Positions 1 to 64,000 of a stretch of DNA of 64,000 nucleotides are shown piece by piece. Origin of the DNA: Thermoplasmata archaeon. GTDB lineage: Archaea; Thermoplasmatota; Thermoplasmata; Methanomassiliicoccales; Methanomethylophilaceae. The position numbers and the translations under genes are program-made. Below the pieces are notes generated by a model. It saw only the letters and a list, made by a program, of their open reading frames with translations. It ran no database searches and was not told where the DNA came from. The stretch lies in assembly GCA_015063125.1 (NCBI GenBank), contig SUTB01000004.1, forward strand, positions 1 to 64,000. Reading direction: 5' to 3'. The first letter of the stretch is position 1; every line of letters begins with the position of its first letter.

Positions 1-38
1 ATGCGGGGATCCGTCAGCGTAAGCTATAAACAGCAAGC

Positions 39-77
39 AAAAACATGCAGTAACAACGCTCGTTTTTGTCAAGTAAA
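39..77. repeat. 39-bp dispersed repeat, copy 1
   Basis: This 39-bp element recurs at 34804-34842 with only four differences, all transitions. It contains a 7-bp inverted repeat (CAAAAAC ... GTTTTTG) around a 17-nt centre. Both copies lie just beyond a hairpin terminator that follows a minus-strand gene. Function unknown; it could be an element end, a processing signal or a small-RNA segment. Confidence 0.6.
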
Positions 78-96: not shown

Positions 97-116
97 GTCC
101 GCGATTGGTCGCGGAC
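97..116 (-). terminator. hairpin terminator after the YegP-like gene
   Basis: A perfect 8-bp stem (GTCCGCGA/TCGCGGAC) with a 4-nt loop sits 14 bp past the stop of the minus-strand gene at 130-504. The minus strand is pyrimidine-rich after the stem. It probably ends that transcript. Confidence 0.55.
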
Positions 117-129
117 AGCCTTGATGGGA

Positions 130-504
130 TCACTCCTCGACCACTTCGGTCTCAGAGTCCTTGTTGTTCCTGACGGACTCGATTCCCTTCTTGGCGTTGG
201 CCTTTGCAGTGTATCCCTCGGATGCTGCAAGGATGATCTCGCCGTTGGAGGCTTTGAGCCTGAACCTGAACTCACCGGCTTTGTCGGTGTAGATCTCCCA
301 CTTGGGGCATTTGAGCTCCTCGAAGTCCTGGACGGTCTGGTCCTCGATCTCGACATCTGCGTTCTTCTTAACAGACTCGATTCCGTTCTTCAGAGCGGAC
401 ATGGACGAGTAGGTCTGAGAGACTCCGATGACCTCGTGGTTGTTAGCTGCAAGGCTGAAGGCAAATCCGTCATTTGACGTCTTCTTGACGATAAATTTTC
501 CCAT
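130..504 (-). CDS. YegP-like protein, two DUF1508 repeats
   Basis: The 124-residue protein is made of two tandem DUF1508 repeats (about residues 10-58 and 62-112), each with an F-x-F/R-x-L strand, an N-x-E-(V/I) turn and a closing GIESV(K/R) segment. This two-repeat form is the usual size of bacterial YegP. The molecular role of the family is not established. The gene is monocistronic, divergent from 715-1158, with an AT-rich promoter region (TTAATAC) upstream of 504 and a hairpin after its stop. Family assignment is firm; function is not. Confidence 0.85.
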   Translation of the reverse strand: MGKFIVKKTSNDGFAFSLAANNHEVIGVSQTYSSMSALKNGIESVKKNADVEIEDQTVQDFEELKCPKWEIYTDKAGEFRFRLKASNGEIILAASEGYTAKANAKKGIESVRNNKDSETEVVEE

Positions 505-34718: not shown

Positions 34719-34803
34719 TCTGACCTATAATTCTATTCGATTCGGGTATAACGCAGCTCATGTAGACTTGATGCCCCATTAGCAGGAAGGAATGGCCAGT
34801 AAC

Positions 34804-34842
34804 AAAAATATGCGGTAATAACGCTCGCTTTTGTCAAGTAAA
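34804..34842. repeat. 39-bp dispersed repeat, copy 2
   Basis: Matches 35 of 39 positions of the copy at 39-77, all differences being transitions. An inverted repeat ACAAAA/TTTTGT brackets the centre. It lies 7 bp beyond the terminator of the minus-strand gene at 34882-36099, the same placement as copy 1. Confidence 0.6.
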
Positions 34843-34848
34843 AATGAA

Positions 34849-34872
34849 GGGCAGGACCGTCTGGTCCCGCCC
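34849..34872 (-). terminator. hairpin terminator after the 405-aa secreted protein gene
   Basis: Stem GGGC-A-GGACC / GGTCC-C-GCCC with a 4-nt loop and one A/C mismatch, 10 bp after the stop. On the minus strand a T-rich run (TTCATTTTTAC) follows. Confidence 0.65.
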
Positions 34873-34881
34873 TGAAAGGTT

Positions 34882-36099
34882 TCACTCTGCCAGTTTGAAG
34901 ACATTGTTGAAGATCATGTAGGTGCCGGCGGCGTTATCCGCTGTTCCGACAATCGTGATCTTCTTAAGGTCCTTAGATATCGTTCCGAAGTAATATCCCC
35001 AGAACGTTTCTCCGTTGTTATCGTAGACCGATTCCATATAGAAACTGTAGCCAGATTCGTTGGGGAAAAGCATCGCACCAAAATAAGAATCCCCCTCGGG
35101 CGCAAACAAGGTGACCTCTATAACGTTAGTGTTGGGATCGACAAAGTCGAACGTTATGGCCACTTCGTCCTCCATAGACCTCAGAACTACTCCATTCTCC
35201 TCGACATATGCGTTGAAGGTTCCCTCGTAACGCTTGCCCCAAAGGGTGCTGGGGGCCTTCACGACTTTGCTCTCGTCACCGTAACATACCTGCCAAAGTT
35301 CGATATCGCCGTTGGTATTGTCGTAGGATGCTGTATATATGACCCCGTCCTCGATATGCACCATATCGATAAGGCAGGTGTCGCTATCATAATCTGAGAT
35401 TGCCATCCAGTCATTAGGCGATACCTTCACCGCGACGAAATCGAGGTCGGTTTGGTCACCGTGAGAGTTGTAGAACATAATACCGGGCTTGACCCCGTTG
35501 ATCGTCAGGTAGCGGTTCTCGGAAAGGTGGTCGATGATACCATCTTCGGTGTACTGGTTCGCAATGAAAGCCTCGTACACATCACCTTCTTGGAATTCGT
35601 AGGAATCTCCCCATGAAGCCTCCCTCGATCCCGCCACGAGCCTGTCACCGGGATCCTGACGCTCGAAGATCATTCTGGCCACACCGATATAGCCGTCAAG
35701 GAACGATGAGACTATGATTGTATCCTCAATCTTGGTCAATATGGACGTGTTCGTGAAATCCCAAATGCCACCAGTCATCATCGTGTTGCCGTTGGCCACA
35801 CAGATATATTCACTGCCATCCAGATGCATGGAGTATATCCCGTCTCCGATCTCCTCGAAGGTCGCGACCTCGTCCCACAGATACTTCGGATCGTACGTCT
35901 CATATACGGTGCTGCCGTCATCGTCATAGTACCCTTCGGCATACGATGCTAGATGCCAATCGCCATCCAGATCCATCTCCTTCTGTCCGCCGTCGTAGAC
36001 GATAAATGAAGCAAATAACACCAGCACAACTGCCGCCACAGTCACCGCAAAAGGCGAAATCTTGCGCAGTTTTCCAGCATTATCAATCTGTTCTGTCAT
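34882..36099 (-). CDS. membrane-anchored extracellular protein of unknown function
   Basis: A 405-aa protein with one N-terminal membrane helix (about residues 16-35) preceded by a short charged segment, then a large beta-rich exterior domain full of Asp, Tyr and Trp. Recurrent G-D-x-Y/W and D-G-x-I-Y motifs suggest repeated beta-hairpins or a propeller-like/lipocalin-like fold; I do not recognise the family. Monocistronic, with a terminator and the 39-bp repeat downstream. Confidence 0.65.
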   Translation of the reverse strand: MTEQIDNAGKLRKISPFAVTVAAVVLVLFASFIVYDGGQKEMDLDGDWHLASYAEGYYDDDGSTVYETYDPKYLWDEVATFEEIGDGIYSMHLDGSEYICVANGNTMMTGGIWDFTNTSILTKIEDTIIVSSFLDGYIGVARMIFERQDPGDRLVAGSREASWGDSYEFQEGDVYEAFIANQYTEDGIIDHLSENRYLTINGVKPGIMFYNSHGDQTDLDFVAVKVSPNDWMAISDYDSDTCLIDMVHIEDGVIYTASYDNTNGDIELWQVCYGDESKVVKAPSTLWGKRYEGTFNAYVEENGVVLRSMEDEVAITFDFVDPNTNVIEVTLFAPEGDSYFGAMLFPNESGYSFYMESVYDNNGETFWGYYFGTISKDLKKITIVGTADNAAGTYMIFNNVFKLAE

Positions 36100-57763: not shown

Positions 57764-60700
57764 TCAGCGTATGTGCTCTGCGAGCTCACTGAGGAACCCG
57801 TCGAACTCCATTACTATCTGATTGACCACTTTTCCGGACTGGTATTCCGCATAGGTGGTCCCGATTGCAAATCCGTCGCCGTGAGGTACGACGACTGAGT
57901 GCATCCTGAACGGGGAACGTGACAGTGCGGGCAACTGTCTGGCGGCCAGTCCGCCTCCCATCGAGCCCTCCGATTCTCCTTCGCCGATCTTGTAATTCTC
58001 GAACTGGATCACCACATCCGGATATATCGTGGGACGTGCTTCGAATATGGGCAGCAGCGGGATGTCCAGATACTGGAGGGTCCTGTCGACCTGTTTGACC
58101 GCACTCTCTACATATCCCATCAGATCGTCGGAGTCTTTGGTTATCCATATCGGATGGAGCCTCATGAACACTCCGACCGAATCTTCCACATCGACCTCTC
58201 CCCTTCCGTCCTCGATGATGTAGAACATCTTGTCCTTGCCGTACACGCGGTTGAGCGCATATGCCTCCGCCATATAGAACACGTCCGCCGGGCCGCAGTT
58301 GAGCTTTTGCGTGATATCCTTCATATCCGCAGCGCTTATGGAAAGGGGCATCTGGACTACACCACTGTCATCCTCACTCACCACTCCGTCATCATAGGTA
58401 TCGTCGCTTCCTTCCAACGTCTGGAGGAACTCTTCCGACCTCCTTTTGAACGTCTCGGTCAGCATGTATGCATTGTCATATCCTGCCTGACGGATCACTC
58501 CGTCATCGATCGGAGGTATGGTGCCGGTCATTATGGACTGTATGCGCATCGCCAGAGGAGCGATGGAACGCCCGTCGAAGGCCAAATGGCAGATGTCGAT
58601 GAACAGGGTACATTGCCCCTCCCATTCCACTACCGCGAATCTCGACAGACACGGGCCGAACGGTGTGAAGGGTCTGACGAAGGTCTTTGCGAACTCCTCC
58701 GGGTCGCATTGAGCGGTCTCGATATCGATGTGCGCATCGTATCTTACGGTCACGTCCCTCTCGCTCTTGGCGATCATATGCATGCGGAGGTCGGGAGTCG
58801 TCTGTATCAAGGCTTCAACAGCCTTGTACACCATGTCGAAACTGATGAACGGTGGCAGAGTCACCATGGTGGCGATGTTAAGGCTGAGATTCGATACCAG
58901 CATGTACTTTATGACGTCCATCTGCGAGAACGAAGGAGGATGTCCCTTGTCCATGTCGTAGACGAAGCTCTGTATCTTGTCCTTGGCTTCCTGCTCTGAA
59001 AGAATCGCCCTCACGGTGCGCTTCCTCATGATATCGCGGGCGAAGACATGCTTGCCGGATTTCTCGTTGAAGATCGATGCGATCCAAGTAGCTTTGAGCG
59101 AATCGCCGCCCAGACGCTGGAAGTCGTCATCGATTCCCGCTCTTTCGAGACCTAAGGCCTCAGCGAATGCTCTGCAGAGGATGCGCTCATCCTCATCCCT
59201 CGGCTCCGAATAATCGGAGCTGAGCACGGATAGATCCGGCTCAGGCAGTGCACGTTTGTCCACCTTACCGTTGACCGTCAGAGGGATCCGGTCTAGCTTG
59301 ATGACGAACGACGGTACCATGTAGTCCGGTTTCCTGTCTGAGACGAACTTCTGGATGTCGGATACAGATGTCGCAGATGATGCGACCACATATGCGCAGA
59401 GCTCCTTGGTTCCGCTTGCGGAGGCTATCGGCTGCACAGTGACACCTGTTATCTCAGGCATTGCCTTGATGCATGCCTCCACCTCCGTCAGTTCGACACG
59501 GTTTCCGCGTATCTTCACCTGTCCGTCCCTTCTGCCTATGACGCCGAGCGTACCGTCCGGGAGCAGCCTGAAGAAGTCTCCGGTAGCGTACATCCTCTCG
59601 TATCCCTCCTCATCGGAGAATGGGTTGCCGAAGAACGCCTCGGCGTTCCTTTCGGGATTGTTGAGATAACCTGATGACAACTGATATCCTGACAGGAACA
59701 GTTCTCCTACCGCTCCCACAGGTACCCTGCGATGGTCCGCATCGAGTATGTATCCCTTAACGTTCTGGATAAGATGGCCGACAGACGAGCTATATGCACG
59801 TTCGTTTACCGGGATCGCCGCACTGACCGCAAGATTCTCCGACGGCCCGTACGTCTCCAAAGCACCGATGAAATCCGGTGCAGTGAATTCGCCGAGTTTC
59901 TCTCCTCCATAGGCCAGGCAACGCAATGTGGACGCTTTGACACTAGATGCGAACATCTTCCCCAAGTTGGTTGTGATGAATGTATGCGTCACTCCGCGGG
60001 ACACGAAATGCTCATTCAGACGATGGATGTCCAGACGGATGTCCTCCGGAACTATGTCCACCGAACCTCCGGTGAATATCGGCGGGTACAACGACATGGT
60101 ATGCATATCGAACGCTACCGATGCGAACAGCGCGAACACATCCCCGCTCTTGAAATCAGTGTAGGAGGAGGTCCATTCACTGAAGTTCTCCAGTGACTGG
60201 TGCGGTATCTTGGAACCCTTCGGCTTACCTGTGGTACCGGACGTGTAAAGGATGACTGCCGTATCGGTCGGCAAGACTGATACCGGCGTGAAATGGGAGG
60301 GTTCTAACCCTTCACAGCCTACGGTCGGGAGTCCGGTCAGAGAACCGCAGCGTTCTTTGGTCTCTCCTGTTACTACAACGGCTTTCGAGGATGAGTCGTT
60401 CAACATATGCGATATACGCTCGTCAGGATACGATATGTCGATAGGGACGTATGCCGCTCCTGTCTTCATCACGCCGATTGCGCAGATAAGATACCATTCC
60501 GATCTCGGAACCATGATCGCTACATTATCTCCTCTGATCACGCCTGATGACTTTAGGGTGGTCGCTATGGAATCCGAGATAACATCTACTTCTGTGTAGG
60601 TGTAGCTACGATCCATGTAGGTAAGGAGGGTCCTGTCCGGGTACTCCGAAACCGAATGTCTGAACGCTTCCAGGATATTGTTGAATCTCAGCGGAGCAGC

Positions 60701-63700
60701 TGTGTCGTTGATGGAATCGAGGATGTCTATGTCCTCCGAAGATGTGTATTGGATGTCCGACAGCCTCTCGCAGGCTATCAGACCCTTTGCAATCTCATTA
60801 AACGCATGCAGGAAACGCTCGCACGTACTTAGCGAGTACCTTCCGGAATGCTCCAATGATGCCATGAAACCGTCATTGGATTCGGTAACATAGATGGCCA
60901 GGTCCGATACCCAATCAGCCGAATAGATCCCATGGCCGGAAGAATCTCCGCTTGCAGCCGATGTTATCGAGCGTATGCTGGAGTTGATGTCTGCGAGGAA
61001 CTCGAAGGAAACTTTCATGGTCAATCCGTAGCGTCCTGCAACATCCATGAACGGGACCTTGGAATGGGACATCGAGGAAAGGATCGAATCCATCGATGAG
61101 TTCAGGAACTCCGATACCGGACGGTCGCTACAATCGATCGATACAGGGAATGTATTGACGAACATGCCCACAGCATCCTCGGTGCCCTCGGCGTTTCTTC
61201 CCTTCTCGGTCATCGGAAACACCGCCTGCGTGGAACCAGTGAATCTAGACAGGGTGTAACCGAACACAGCTGTGAAGAATCCTCCAGCGGTCATGCCCGA
61301 AGGGATGTCTCTTGAAGTGATTGGGATCGGCATCTCGAATGAACCTTTCACACCGTTGCCGTCCTCCACAGGCAGTTCGATGTCCTCTATGACGCCATCA
61401 TAATAAGAAAGGGCATCCTCCTGGTAATCCGCATCAGGCTGGTCTGCGGCGGATGTCAGGAATCCGTATTCCGCCGGTATCTGGACTCCTTCAAAGGCCA
61501 TTCCGAGATCGCGGATGAGTATTCTTCTTGACTCTGCATCCATTATCACATGGTGGACGTTCCACTGAATGTATCCGGGCACTATGCGGAACCTGCACAG
61601 GGATTCAGAGAAGTTGAACGGACGGAGGAACTCGTCATCCGATGATTTTTCAATAATCGGTCTGTTACCGGGCACCAACCACGGTTCGCCTCCGACCTCG
61701 GATATGTGCATCGATAGGACGGGGTGTGCATCCAGAACAGCGTCTATCGCATGGAGAATGTCGTCATCGGATGCTCCTTCCGGAATCGGGAACATTCCGG
61801 GAGCAGAGTATGCTGTCCCCTTGTCATTGGCCATCTCGTCGAGATACACATTGAGCTGTGGTCCAGAGAGCGGGGCCGATAAAGATTCCGCCAAGGCCTG
61901 CAAGATCGATCCCAGCCTGTTCTTTATTGTCTCGAAGATCGGCAGCTGCATCGGACATCTGCCCGATATTATGAGGCCGTCATCGGTCTCTGCGATATTG
62001 AATGATAGCAATTCGCCCATGTCCGGGGGTTCCTGATAGCTGATAGGTAACCTAACAGCCTCTAGGAGGCTGTCAGAATAGCTGAAGGCCGAACTGAGAT
62101 AATTGAACGTTATGGGCGGAAGATCGTTTCTTAGATATCCGTATCCCCTGCCTCCCTTCGGTACGGAGCGTCTGGCCTTCCTCACAGAGAAGACATCGCG
62201 TACAGGATCGCCGGTCGTGGACAGCACCAGCGGATACATGCAAGTGAACCATCCCACGGTGCGCTCGACATCGTGGTCCCTTCCGTGACCCTCCATCCTC
62301 AGCACCAGATCTGTTCCCGTGATATCCTTGAAGGATTCAGCGAATGCGGTCAGCAATATGTCCTGTTTCCCGATGCCGTAGCGGTTCTCGGCAGAAAGGG
62401 GCAAGCTGATGGAGAACGGCTCGGACTCCAGCTCGGGAACATTGGCATCTATCTTTACCTTATCCCAGTAGCGCCTCTCGGATTCTGTCGGTTGGTATCC
62501 CCTGGCGATCCAATCCCTTATGGGCATGGTCCTGGGCGGCAGGGACGGTTCCCTTCCGTCAATGGCTGCAGAGATGCATTCGGACAGGTCCGACAGTATG
62601 ATGTTCCATGACACCCCGTCCACGGCTATATGGTTGATCATGAGGCGGATGTATCTCCTGCCCTCGTACGATATGAGAAGACATGCCATCAGCCTGCCCT
62701 CTGAAAGTGACAACGTGCTTAACGCGAATGCTGAGGATGACAGGATGTCGTCCTCCGAGAATGCTTCCACCAGCGTTACATCGCAGACCCTGATACCCTG
62801 GTCCCTTATCCTCGGCCTTCCGTCGTAGATGGCACGGAGCATATCATGTCTGTCCGTGACGGCATCTATGGCATGCTGGAGGATGCCCTCGTCCAAAGAC
62901 TGCGGACAGAGCAGATCCATGTGCTGTACGAATGTGTCCCTCTGATCAGCTGTGCCCGATTTCAGGAATATGCTGTGAATGGGTATCTCCCCGATATTTC
63001 CTACAGAGGAGCCCATATCGGCGGCCGACGATACTGTGGAGGAGATAGCGCGCACGGTGCGCAGGGACACCACGTCCTTCGCCTTGATCTCTATGCCCTG
63101 CGACCTGCATGATGATACCGCTCTGATCGCTTTCAGGGAGTCCCCGCCCAAACGCATGAAGTCATCGTCGATACCTATGCCTTCAATACCAAGAGCTGAA
63201 GAGAATGCATCGCACAGGACTTTCTCGATATCGTTCCTAGGCGCTGTGTACTCCTTCCTGAGGCTCGATATATCCGGCTTCGGTAGGGCGCGCATATCGA
63301 CCTTACCGTTAACGTTAAGCGGGATCTTCTCAAGGATTATCACGAAGGAAGGGACCATATAGTCGGGCTTGCGCTCGGCCACGTACGACCTCACGGATTC
63401 CCCAGAGATATGCTGGCCTGATGCTGAATGCAGTACGACGTATGCACAGAGCTCCTTGGAACCGTCGTTCTGGACGATAGACTGGACGGTGACATCGCCG
63501 ATGCCTTCCATGGATCTTATGCATGCTTCGACTTCGGTAGGCTCCACACGGTTTCCGCGTATCTTCACCTGTCCATCCCTTCTTCCTATGATGCCGAGGG
63601 TGCCGTCCGGGAGCAGTCTGAAGAAGTCGCCTGTGGCATACATCCTCTCATAACCCTCCTCATCGCAGAACGGGTTGTCAAGGAACACCTCTGAGTTCTT

Positions 63701-64000
63701 CTCCGGATTATTGAGGTATCCTGAGGAAAGCTGGTATCCTGAGACGTACAGTTCGCCCACGGCACCGACAGGTACCCTGCGGCGTTCGCTGTCCAGGATG
63801 TACACTTTGGAATTCATATTCGGTATTCCTACGGAACTGCTGTAATTACGTTCCGAGACCGATATCGATGACGTGCAGGCGGTGTTCTCTGTCGGGCCGT
63901 ATCCGTCGATGACGTTGACATCGGTGAACACATCGAACTTCCCCAACGCCTCCCCGCCTAATATCACATTCCTGAGCTTTACCTCTGGATGCTTCTCGAT
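57764..64000 (-). CDS. non-ribosomal peptide synthetase, 3' part (5' end beyond the window)
   Basis: The frame stays open to the right edge, so the start is missing. Numbering from 63967, the domains are: A1 C-terminal part (1-240), carrier T1 with GGDSL Ser277, epimerization E (about 325-695; NHIAVDG at 445-451 and EGHGRD at 559), condensation C (about 700-1090; HHVIMDA at 805), complete A2 (about 1095-1590; TSGTTGKPKG), T2 with Ser1623, and a terminal C-like domain (about 1670-2060; CHLAFDG at 1793). There is no thioesterase or reductase. E followed by C implies a D-residue is passed on. No PPTase or MbtH lies in the window. Confidence 0.93.
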   Translation of the reverse strand: MEKHPEVKLRNVILGGEALGKFDVFTDVNVIDGYGPTENTACTSSISVSERNYSSSVGIPNMNSKVYILDSERRRVPVGAVGELYVSGYQLSSGYLNNPEKNSEVFLDNPFCDEEGYERMYATGDFFRLLPDGTLGIIGRRDGQVKIRGNRVEPTEVEACIRSMEGIGDVTVQSIVQNDGSKELCAYVVLHSASGQHISGESVRSYVAERKPDYMVPSFVIILEKIPLNVNGKVDMRALPKPDISSLRKEYTAPRNDIEKVLCDAFSSALGIEGIGIDDDFMRLGGDSLKAIRAVSSCRSQGIEIKAKDVVSLRTVRAISSTVSSAADMGSSVGNIGEIPIHSIFLKSGTADQRDTFVQHMDLLCPQSLDEGILQHAIDAVTDRHDMLRAIYDGRPRIRDQGIRVCDVTLVEAFSEDDILSSSAFALSTLSLSEGRLMACLLISYEGRRYIRLMINHIAVDGVSWNIILSDLSECISAAIDGREPSLPPRTMPIRDWIARGYQPTESERRYWDKVKIDANVPELESEPFSISLPLSAENRYGIGKQDILLTAFAESFKDITGTDLVLRMEGHGRDHDVERTVGWFTCMYPLVLSTTGDPVRDVFSVRKARRSVPKGGRGYGYLRNDLPPITFNYLSSAFSYSDSLLEAVRLPISYQEPPDMGELLSFNIAETDDGLIISGRCPMQLPIFETIKNRLGSILQALAESLSAPLSGPQLNVYLDEMANDKGTAYSAPGMFPIPEGASDDDILHAIDAVLDAHPVLSMHISEVGGEPWLVPGNRPIIEKSSDDEFLRPFNFSESLCRFRIVPGYIQWNVHHVIMDAESRRILIRDLGMAFEGVQIPAEYGFLTSAADQPDADYQEDALSYYDGVIEDIELPVEDGNGVKGSFEMPIPITSRDIPSGMTAGGFFTAVFGYTLSRFTGSTQAVFPMTEKGRNAEGTEDAVGMFVNTFPVSIDCSDRPVSEFLNSSMDSILSSMSHSKVPFMDVAGRYGLTMKVSFEFLADINSSIRSITSAASGDSSGHGIYSADWVSDLAIYVTESNDGFMASLEHSGRYSLSTCERFLHAFNEIAKGLIACERLSDIQYTSSEDIDILDSINDTAAPLRFNNILEAFRHSVSEYPDRTLLTYMDRSYTYTEVDVISDSIATTLKSSGVIRGDNVAIMVPRSEWYLICAIGVMKTGAAYVPIDISYPDERISHMLNDSSSKAVVVTGETKERCGSLTGLPTVGCEGLEPSHFTPVSVLPTDTAVILYTSGTTGKPKGSKIPHQSLENFSEWTSSYTDFKSGDVFALFASVAFDMHTMSLYPPIFTGGSVDIVPEDIRLDIHRLNEHFVSRGVTHTFITTNLGKMFASSVKASTLRCLAYGGEKLGEFTAPDFIGALETYGPSENLAVSAAIPVNERAYSSSVGHLIQNVKGYILDADHRRVPVGAVGELFLSGYQLSSGYLNNPERNAEAFFGNPFSDEEGYERMYATGDFFRLLPDGTLGVIGRRDGQVKIRGNRVELTEVEACIKAMPEITGVTVQPIASASGTKELCAYVVASSATSVSDIQKFVSDRKPDYMVPSFVIKLDRIPLTVNGKVDKRALPEPDLSVLSSDYSEPRDEDERILCRAFAEALGLERAGIDDDFQRLGGDSLKATWIASIFNEKSGKHVFARDIMRKRTVRAILSEQEAKDKIQSFVYDMDKGHPPSFSQMDVIKYMLVSNLSLNIATMVTLPPFISFDMVYKAVEALIQTTPDLRMHMIAKSERDVTVRYDAHIDIETAQCDPEEFAKTFVRPFTPFGPCLSRFAVVEWEGQCTLFIDICHLAFDGRSIAPLAMRIQSIMTGTIPPIDDGVIRQAGYDNAYMLTETFKRRSEEFLQTLEGSDDTYDDGVVSEDDSGVVQMPLSISAADMKDITQKLNCGPADVFYMAEAYALNRVYGKDKMFYIIEDGRGEVDVEDSVGVFMRLHPIWITKDSDDLMGYVESAVKQVDRTLQYLDIPLLPIFEARPTIYPDVVIQFENYKIGEGESEGSMGGGLAARQLPALSRSPFRMHSVVVPHGDGFAIGTTYAEYQSGKVVNQIVMEFDGFLSELAEHIR

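What the first reader, a model, noticed from the sequence alone, without database searches (positions are those of the whole stretch)
39..77. 39-bp dispersed repeat found twice, each beside a terminator
Copies at 39-77 and 34804-34842 differ at four sites, all transitions, and carry inverted-repeat arms (the left one CAAAAAC/GTTTTTG). Both follow a hairpin terminator of a minus-strand gene at similar distance, though the genes are unrelated (YegP-like; a secreted protein). It may be a mobile miniature element, a 3' processing signal or a regulatory RNA.
Basis: seen in the sequence. Interest (0 to 1): 0.55.

Follow-up and report, generated by a model that had tools for sequence, protein, structure and literature searches.

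The report
Jumping-gene end plus miniature relative
The short repeat is the right-hand end of an RNA-guided jumping gene of gut methanogens, and its second copy is a 50-letter leftover or mini version of the same element; the element lands beside gene terminators, and the guide RNA of several copies matches the DNA each copy sits in.

Summary
The repeat is real (four transitions, as described). It is not a 3' processing signal. Copy 1 (38-77) is the right end of an IS1111-type insertion sequence (about 1.41 kb, DEDD transposase) cut off by the contig start: two contigs share their first 77 bp, then diverge. Copy 2 (34793-34842) holds only the two ends of that element, joined. In a complete same-species genome lacking this IS, one IS site is empty (an A-run) and another 50-bp ends-only copy is absent (an exact 50-bp difference). 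The element's downstream non-coding region folds like a seekRNA/bridge RNA: one loop strand is complementary to the right flank, the other matches the left flank, copy by copy (p about 2e-4, n = 9; p = 0.0036, n = 7); a blind scan of the region picks out the same two segments. Insertion sites tend to lie just 3' of minus-strand genes, beside terminator hairpins. So 'mobile miniature element' fits copy 2; copy 1 is a full IS end. Open: whether copy 2 moved as a miniature element or is an internal-deletion remnant. A new member of a known kind, with clear natural guide reprogramming, even between near-identical copies in one genome.

The parts
1..74 (+). Right end of an IS1111-type insertion sequence, truncated by the start of the contig
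   Evidence: First 77 bp identical to the start of contig C1, diverging after it; 87% identical to the right end of the full IS at G000:C1:57717-57793; same end in copies of six other genomes
38..77 (+). Repeat copy 1 (the finding): last 37 bp of the IS plus AAA core
57..69 (+). Right subterminal inverted repeat CGCTCGTTTTTGT (partner ACAAAAACGAGCG in the left end, outside the window)
   Evidence: sequence; left ends
75..77 (+). AAA core, shared by element and target
   Evidence: empty sites in the same-species genome G005
97..116 (.). Terminator-like hairpin of the minus-strand gene next to copy 1
   Evidence: 8-bp stem
130..504 (-). Small DUF1508 (YegP-like) gene whose 3' end faces copy 1
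   Evidence: Pfam PF07411; ORF
34793..34842 (+). Copy 2: 50-bp ends-only derivative (left end TGGCCAGTAACAAAAA joined to the right end ..ACGCTCGCTTTTGTCAAGT, then AAA)
   Evidence: present at the orthologous place in G005
34849..34872 (.). Terminator-like hairpin GGGCAGGACC/GGTCCCGCCC of the minus-strand gene next to copy 2
   Evidence: read from sequence; 5-bp perfect core found
34882..36099 (-). Gene of unknown function (405 aa, N-terminal hydrophobic stretch by eye) whose 3' end faces copy 2
   Evidence: ORF; no Pfam or NCBIfam hit

Best explanation
The repeat is the right end of an IS1111-type, RNA-guided insertion sequence of Methanomethylophilaceae archaea. Copy 1 is a full-length IS whose remainder was lost at the contig break. 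Copy 2 is an ends-only (47 bp plus AAA) derivative. Mechanism: the transposase (341 aa, DEDD plus Transposase_20) uses an RNA from the roughly 280-nt region downstream of its gene. [quoted passage not shown] A second segment pair resembles the joined element ends (..AAGT-AAA-TGAC..). Insertion goes into A-runs (T-runs on the gene's strand) next to terminators. Shown by sequence: element boundaries, the empty or shorter sites, per-copy match of guide and flank, transposase family. Inferred: the RNA's expression, circle formation, activity, and that ends-only copies can still be moved in trans.
For: Two contigs start with the same 77 bp and two others with the same left end, as expected when an assembly breaks in a repeated IS. 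One full copy (C1:57.7k) has the transposase directly upstream. Six complete copies from six genomes are 1411-1414 bp with a 13-bp subterminal inverted repeat, and the five without a stop have a 341-aa frame from the shared ATG (in one, 362 aa are open from an upstream ATG). The intact protein matches NCBIfam NF033542 'IS110 family RNA-guided transposase' (219 bits, cut-off 140), Pfam PF01548 and PF02371, and IS621 and ISCro4 in the PDB. In the complete same-species genome G005, the flanks of contigs C7 and C1 lie next to each other around GAGAAAAAAAGG, an empty site, and the C4 50-bp copy is absent. The consensus fold puts both guide segments in one internal loop (columns 96-106 and 121-131). 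Guide 1 against own right flank: 52 versus a permuted mean of 39.3, p = 2e-4, 9 copies; guide 2 against own left flank: 16 of 21 versus 8.4, p = 0.0036, 7 copies. In a blind scan the eight best of 155 windows all overlap guide 1, and the best of 73 is guide 2 (p 0.0025; next 0.10).
Against: No complete, intact copy is in the window or in its assembly: the two full copies at contig ends are collapsed, and the third has an in-frame TAA. Covariation for the RNA fold is weak (2 of 79 pairs with two-sided changes; covariation term -0.11). The guide match is uneven: the own flank scores best in its row for 4 of 9 copies (one of them tied), and scores only 4-5 for L005, L027, L029 and L032. The extensions outside the inverted repeats (9 and 5 bp plus AAA) are longer than the 7 and 3 bp reported for IS1111 members. 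The link of copy 1 to contig C6 rests on 83% similarity and elimination.
Confidence: 0.88

Rival explanations
1. Copy 2 is a scar made in place: a full IS inserted there and then lost its inside by recombination between the 7-bp CAAAAAC repeats near its two ends. (This is about the origin of copy 2 only and is compatible with the main explanation.)
For: Both 50-bp copies join left and right end at CAAAAA, which occurs near both ends of the IS. Each resembles a different variant of the right end (GGTTTTAACG versus GGTAATAACG), so they may have arisen apart. Only three or four such sites were found in 102 genomes, few for a spreading miniature element.
Against: The same junction at two loci from two independent deletions between 7-bp repeats 1.3 kb apart would be a coincidence. 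No intermediate was seen. G005 keeps the copy-2 orthologue although it lacks the IS.
Confidence: 0.5
2. Copy 2 is a true miniature element (about 47 bp) moved in trans by the IS transposase and its guide RNA.
For: The C4 copy is an exact 50-bp difference at an A-run, the same geometry as the full IS. It keeps both sequences that the putative donor loop would read (AAATGAC and AAGTAAA). Mini-IS with short ends move in trans in ISEc11 and ISEc21 (PMC11187229, passages).
Against: Very few copies; a shorter element than any mini-IS in the passages read (LE 50 and RE 46 bp for ISEc11; 29 and 16 bp plus cargo for the IS110-type ISEc21). The two copies share no derived change that would show common descent.
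Confidence: 0.4
3. The 50-bp repeat is an older palindromic repeat that serves as the target into which the IS inserts, as QMITE2 is for IS1111 in Coxiella.
For: IS110 and IS1111 elements often target palindromic repeats (PMC11208160, PMC5896051, passages). The 40-bp right part occurs with and without the IS.
Against: The IS site at C7/C1 is a plain A-run in G005 with no repeat, and both repeat parts are constant in all IS copies, whereas the DNA outside them differs.
Confidence: 0.05
4. A host 3' processing signal, terminator part or small RNA.
For: Position next to hairpins of minus-strand genes; hairpin fold of the repeat.
Against: The position is explained by insertion; the C4 site does without it in the sister genome; no Rfam match in the window other than three tRNAs.
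Confidence: 0.03

Closest known systems
IS1111 group of the IS110 family (ISEc11, ISKpn4, ISPa11; seekRNA / bridge RNA)
   Same: DEDD transposase, 13-bp subterminal inverted repeats, long non-coding region downstream of the gene, guide order 'top-strand complement first, then bottom-strand match', oriented insertion without true duplication if one AAA is counted as element
   Different: Terminal extensions outside the inverted repeats are longer (9 and 5 bp plus AAA instead of 7 and 3 bp); the target is an AAA core in or near terminator T-runs, not REP, attC or a fixed gene sequence; guides differ from copy to copy
Natural reprogramming ISEc11/ISXne4 and ISEc21/ISMch6 (PMC11187229, passages)
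   Same: Related elements with changed guide segments that match changed flanks
   Different: Here nine related copies are compared, three of them in one genome; two of those differ at 6 of 14 guide positions but 4 of 196 others
QMITE2 / IS1111 in Coxiella burnetii (PMC5896051, passages)
   Same: A dispersed palindromic repeat occurs alone and next to IS1111 copies
   Different: There the repeat is read as the IS target; here it is the element's own end

Membership tests
IS1111 group (IS110 family) | DEDD transposase with C-terminal Transposase_20 domain | tested here: met
   PF01548 and PF02371 above cut-off; NF033542 above cut-off
IS1111 group (IS110 family) | Subterminal inverted repeats of about 11-13 bp | tested here: met
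   ACAAAAACGAGCG / CGCTCGTTTTTGT, 13 bp; one of six copies has one base less at the left, one differs in the last base at the right
IS1111 group (IS110 family) | Terminal extensions of 7 (or 6) bp left and 3 bp right of the inverted repeats (usual lengths, not given as the group's definition in the passages read) | tested here: not met
   Empty sites in G005 put the ends at 9 and 5 bp plus a 3-bp AAA that can be counted to either side
IS1111 group (IS110 family) | Longer non-coding region downstream of the transposase gene | tested here: met
   About 103 nt before and about 280 nt after the gene in the copies with an open frame
[quoted passage not shown]
   (statistical match in sequence; the RNA itself not observed)
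IS1111 group (IS110 family) | Guide RNA expressed and bound to transposase; circular intermediate | not testable with these tools
   needs RNA sequencing and PCR
MITE | Short, non-coding, keeps the recognised ends of an autonomous element | tested here: met
   50 bp with both IS ends
MITE | Itself mobile (site polymorphism, several copies from one ancestor) | tested here: inconclusive
   Exact presence/absence at the C4 site, but the two copies may be separate deletion products

The most novel reading that the evidence does not exclude
This archaeal IS lineage changes its guide almost every time it settles: near-identical copies in one genome carry different guides that fit their own sites, so guide and target are rewritten together, by selection on re-excision or by an active copying of flank into guide; and it sheds 47-bp ends-only elements that the same RNA-guided recombinase can still move.
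Probability: 0.2. Interest if true: 0.75.

Novelty: new member of a known kind. Interest (0 to 1): 0.42.

Why it matters
How IS110/IS1111 elements acquire new targets is an open question that also matters for bridge-RNA editing tools. This lineage offers a small natural series of closely related copies with different guide-flank pairs, an AAA core, and a target class (terminator T-runs) that spares host genes. It also warns that short dispersed repeats beside terminators, especially at contig starts, can be IS ends.

Tried and rejected
Considered first: ends of an IS200/IS605 element with a terminal hairpin; dropped when the full copy showed an IS110-type transposase. Considered: a REP-like palindrome as IS target; dropped after the empty A-run site. 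Considered: bare pieces TCGTTTTTGTCAAGT(AAA) in G005, G007, G009, G031 and a 13-mer on C8 as old copies or as targets; upstream parts are no more like the 50-bp copy than shuffles (at best 127 of 500 shuffles as good), and no transposase relative lies beside them in the loci searched; left unexplained. Two scans of viral contigs found nothing.

Rows dropped or not used: L110 (G034:C98) could not be placed by my pattern and was left out. L058 and L059 (68-69% relatives in G002, G001) were not in the guide test because their non-coding region does not fit the pattern. C1 start, C3 start, C6/C7 starts, L025, L033, L038, L043 and L064 lack the guide region or the right end in their contigs. L029 and L037 lack the left flank, so they are in the right-flank test only (9 copies) and not in the left-flank test (7). 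The guide segments were first noticed by eye in three or four copies; the window scan was run to control for that choice (its output lists only the eight best windows of each scan).

Full report
Observation. In the window's genome (1.65 Mb, 8 contigs; window = first 64 kb of contig C3) the 40-mer occurs five times: C1:38, C3:38 (copy 1), C3:34803 (copy 2), C4:781822 and C1:57754.

Why copy 1 sits at the very start. Contigs C1 and C3 begin with the same 77 bases and then diverge; C6 and C7 begin with a second shared sequence. This is what an assembler leaves at the two ends of a repeated element. The second shared sequence, read the other way, holds AAATGACCAGCAACAAAAACGAGCGG, the left end of the element; the first is its right end.

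The element. At C1:57.7k a copy is complete: a transposase with the IS110-family domains PF01548 and PF02371 lies upstream of the right end. Six complete copies from six genomes are 1411-1414 bp and 81-89% identical. The five without a stop contain a 341-aa frame from the shared ATG (in L056 a longer frame of 362 aa is open). The copy of the window's genome has an in-frame TAA. The protein matches NF033542 'IS110 family RNA-guided transposase' and, in the PDB, IS621 and ISCro4. A 13-bp inverted repeat (ACAAAAACGAGCG / CGCTCGTTTTTGT) lies inside each end, and about 280 nt of non-coding sequence follow the gene against about 103 before it. These are marks of the IS1111 group as given in PMC11187229 (passages). 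The repeat in the finding is the last 37 bp of this element plus AAA.

Distribution. The DNA query matches 12 of 31 genomes of the genus at E up to 1 and 12 of 102 of the family at E up to 0.01, in 3 of 14 genera. These counts include weak, partial matches. A transposase relative at E up to 1e-20 is found in 12 of 31 genus genomes; only nine of the 20 matches exceed 60% identity. Named records with the end sequence are Methanomethylophilaceae / Methanomassiliicoccaceae / Thermoplasmata MAGs in 11 of 15 matching stretches; the other four are unrelated bacteria and look like chance.

Mobility. G005, a complete genome of the same species, lacks a close transposase relative (best match 27% identity). 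The flanks of C7 and C1, separated by the IS in the window's genome, lie 147 bp apart there, around GAGAAAAAAAGGAAAGG. The 50-bp copy on C4 is missing there too, and the two sequences otherwise align nearly base for base: GAGAA-AAATGGG against GAGAAAAATGACC...GTCAAGTAAATGGG. So the element ends at TGACC on the left and CAAGT on the right, with an AAA that is present once in the empty site and twice in the filled one. Which way the change went (insertion or precise loss) is not shown. Copy 2 of the window is present at the orthologous place in G005. At the copy-1 locus G005 has no repeat either (GATGTAAAAAGTGG), but the left side is rearranged, so that site is less clean.

The 50-bp copies. C4:781812 and C3:34793 consist of the left end up to CAAAAA followed by the right end from there. 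They lack the transposase and the guide region. G001 has a similar short copy whose left arm is like an inverted right end. Whether such copies moved as miniature elements or are deletion products in place is open; I put the two at about 0.4 and 0.5.

Guide RNA. The non-coding region of nine copies aligns well; two short segments stand out as variable. A consensus fold of eight copies puts both in one internal loop, columns 96-106 and 121-131, on either side of a small hairpin; covariation itself is weak (2 of 79 pairs). The reverse complement of the first segment resembles the copy's own right flank (summed score 52, permuted mean 39.3, p = 2e-4, 9 copies). The second resembles the three bases left of the AAA core (16 of 21 positions, permuted mean 8.4, p = 0.0036, 7 copies with known left flank; 3 of 7 exact). 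Own flank is the best in its row for 4 of 9 copies, one of them tied, so the signal is strong in some copies and weak in others. Sliding the same test along the whole region, the eight best of 155 windows of 11 nt (reverse complement against right flank) all overlap the first segment (p 0.002 or less); the best sense window has p 0.026. Of 73 windows of 3 nt (sense against left flank) the best is the second segment (p 0.0025; next 0.10); the best reverse-complement window has p 0.11. The order matches the IS1111 type in PMC11187229. Two near-identical copies in one genome (L029, L037 in G006) differ at 6 of 14 guide positions but only 4 of 196 others (p = 5e-6); over all pairs 42% of guide positions differ against 9% elsewhere. 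A second pair of segments, GTCATCTT and AAGTAAAT, resembles the joined ends AAGT-AAA-TGAC; this was read by eye and not tested.

Where it inserts. Of 18 sites with a readable right flank, 9 have as their longest nearby frame a minus-strand ORF that ends 5-120 bp away (22 of 400 random places), and 12 have a hairpin stem of at least 6 bp within 70 nt (76 of 400). One site (L029, among the 18) lies about 10 nt from a minus-strand tRNA-Asp, and the divergent relative L058 (not among the 18) lies beside a minus-strand tRNA-Thr. Sites L005, L043 and L097 show no hairpin.

What is known and what is not. IS1111 elements with programmable guide RNAs, mini-IS moved in trans, and two cases of natural reprogramming are in PMC11187229 (passages); bridge RNAs in PMC11208160 (passages). 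Also opened in passages: PMC10969869, PMC5896051, PMC9208149. Searches of the paper library listed no title or abstract on this archaeal element, on IS110/IS1111 targeting of archaeal terminators, or on an ends-only derivative of this size; most listed papers were not opened. ISfinder could not be searched. I file it as a new member of the IS1111 group, with one usual feature (extension lengths) not met.

Noticed in passing
G000 contig ends (L010, L011, L012, L018, L019, L021, L022): Other contig ends also share 76-77 bp (C1 end/C8 start with C2 near a TnpB-like zinc-finger CDS; C3 end/C6 end; C2 end/C7 end), so further multi-copy elements break this assembly. The TnpB reading is by eye.
   Followed up: no
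L111, L113, L106, L035 and G000:C8:66803 (L048) = G005:234751 (L044): Bare pieces TCGTTTTTGTCAAGT(AAA) or TTTGTCAAGTAAA beside gene ends without the element; the 13-mer is expected 0.03 times per genome and occurs six times with no one-mismatch relatives. Old element ends or something else.
   Followed up: partly
L031 (G001:C1:480570): Short copy with both arms like the right end (TTTGCTTGACAAAAAC...GTTTTGTCAAGTAAA), about 1 kb from a 68% relative of the IS
   Followed up: no
L007, IS position 237-239: In-frame TAA in the transposase of the only complete copy in the window's assembly
   Followed up: yes
L072 against window start and L016: Between the window start and contig C6 the same-species genome has about 4.3 kb more and an 83% similar stretch, so the copy-1 locus is also rearranged
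   Followed up: no
59427-59726 and 63477-63776: 300-nt direct repeat, 78% identical, probably paralogous genes
   Followed up: no
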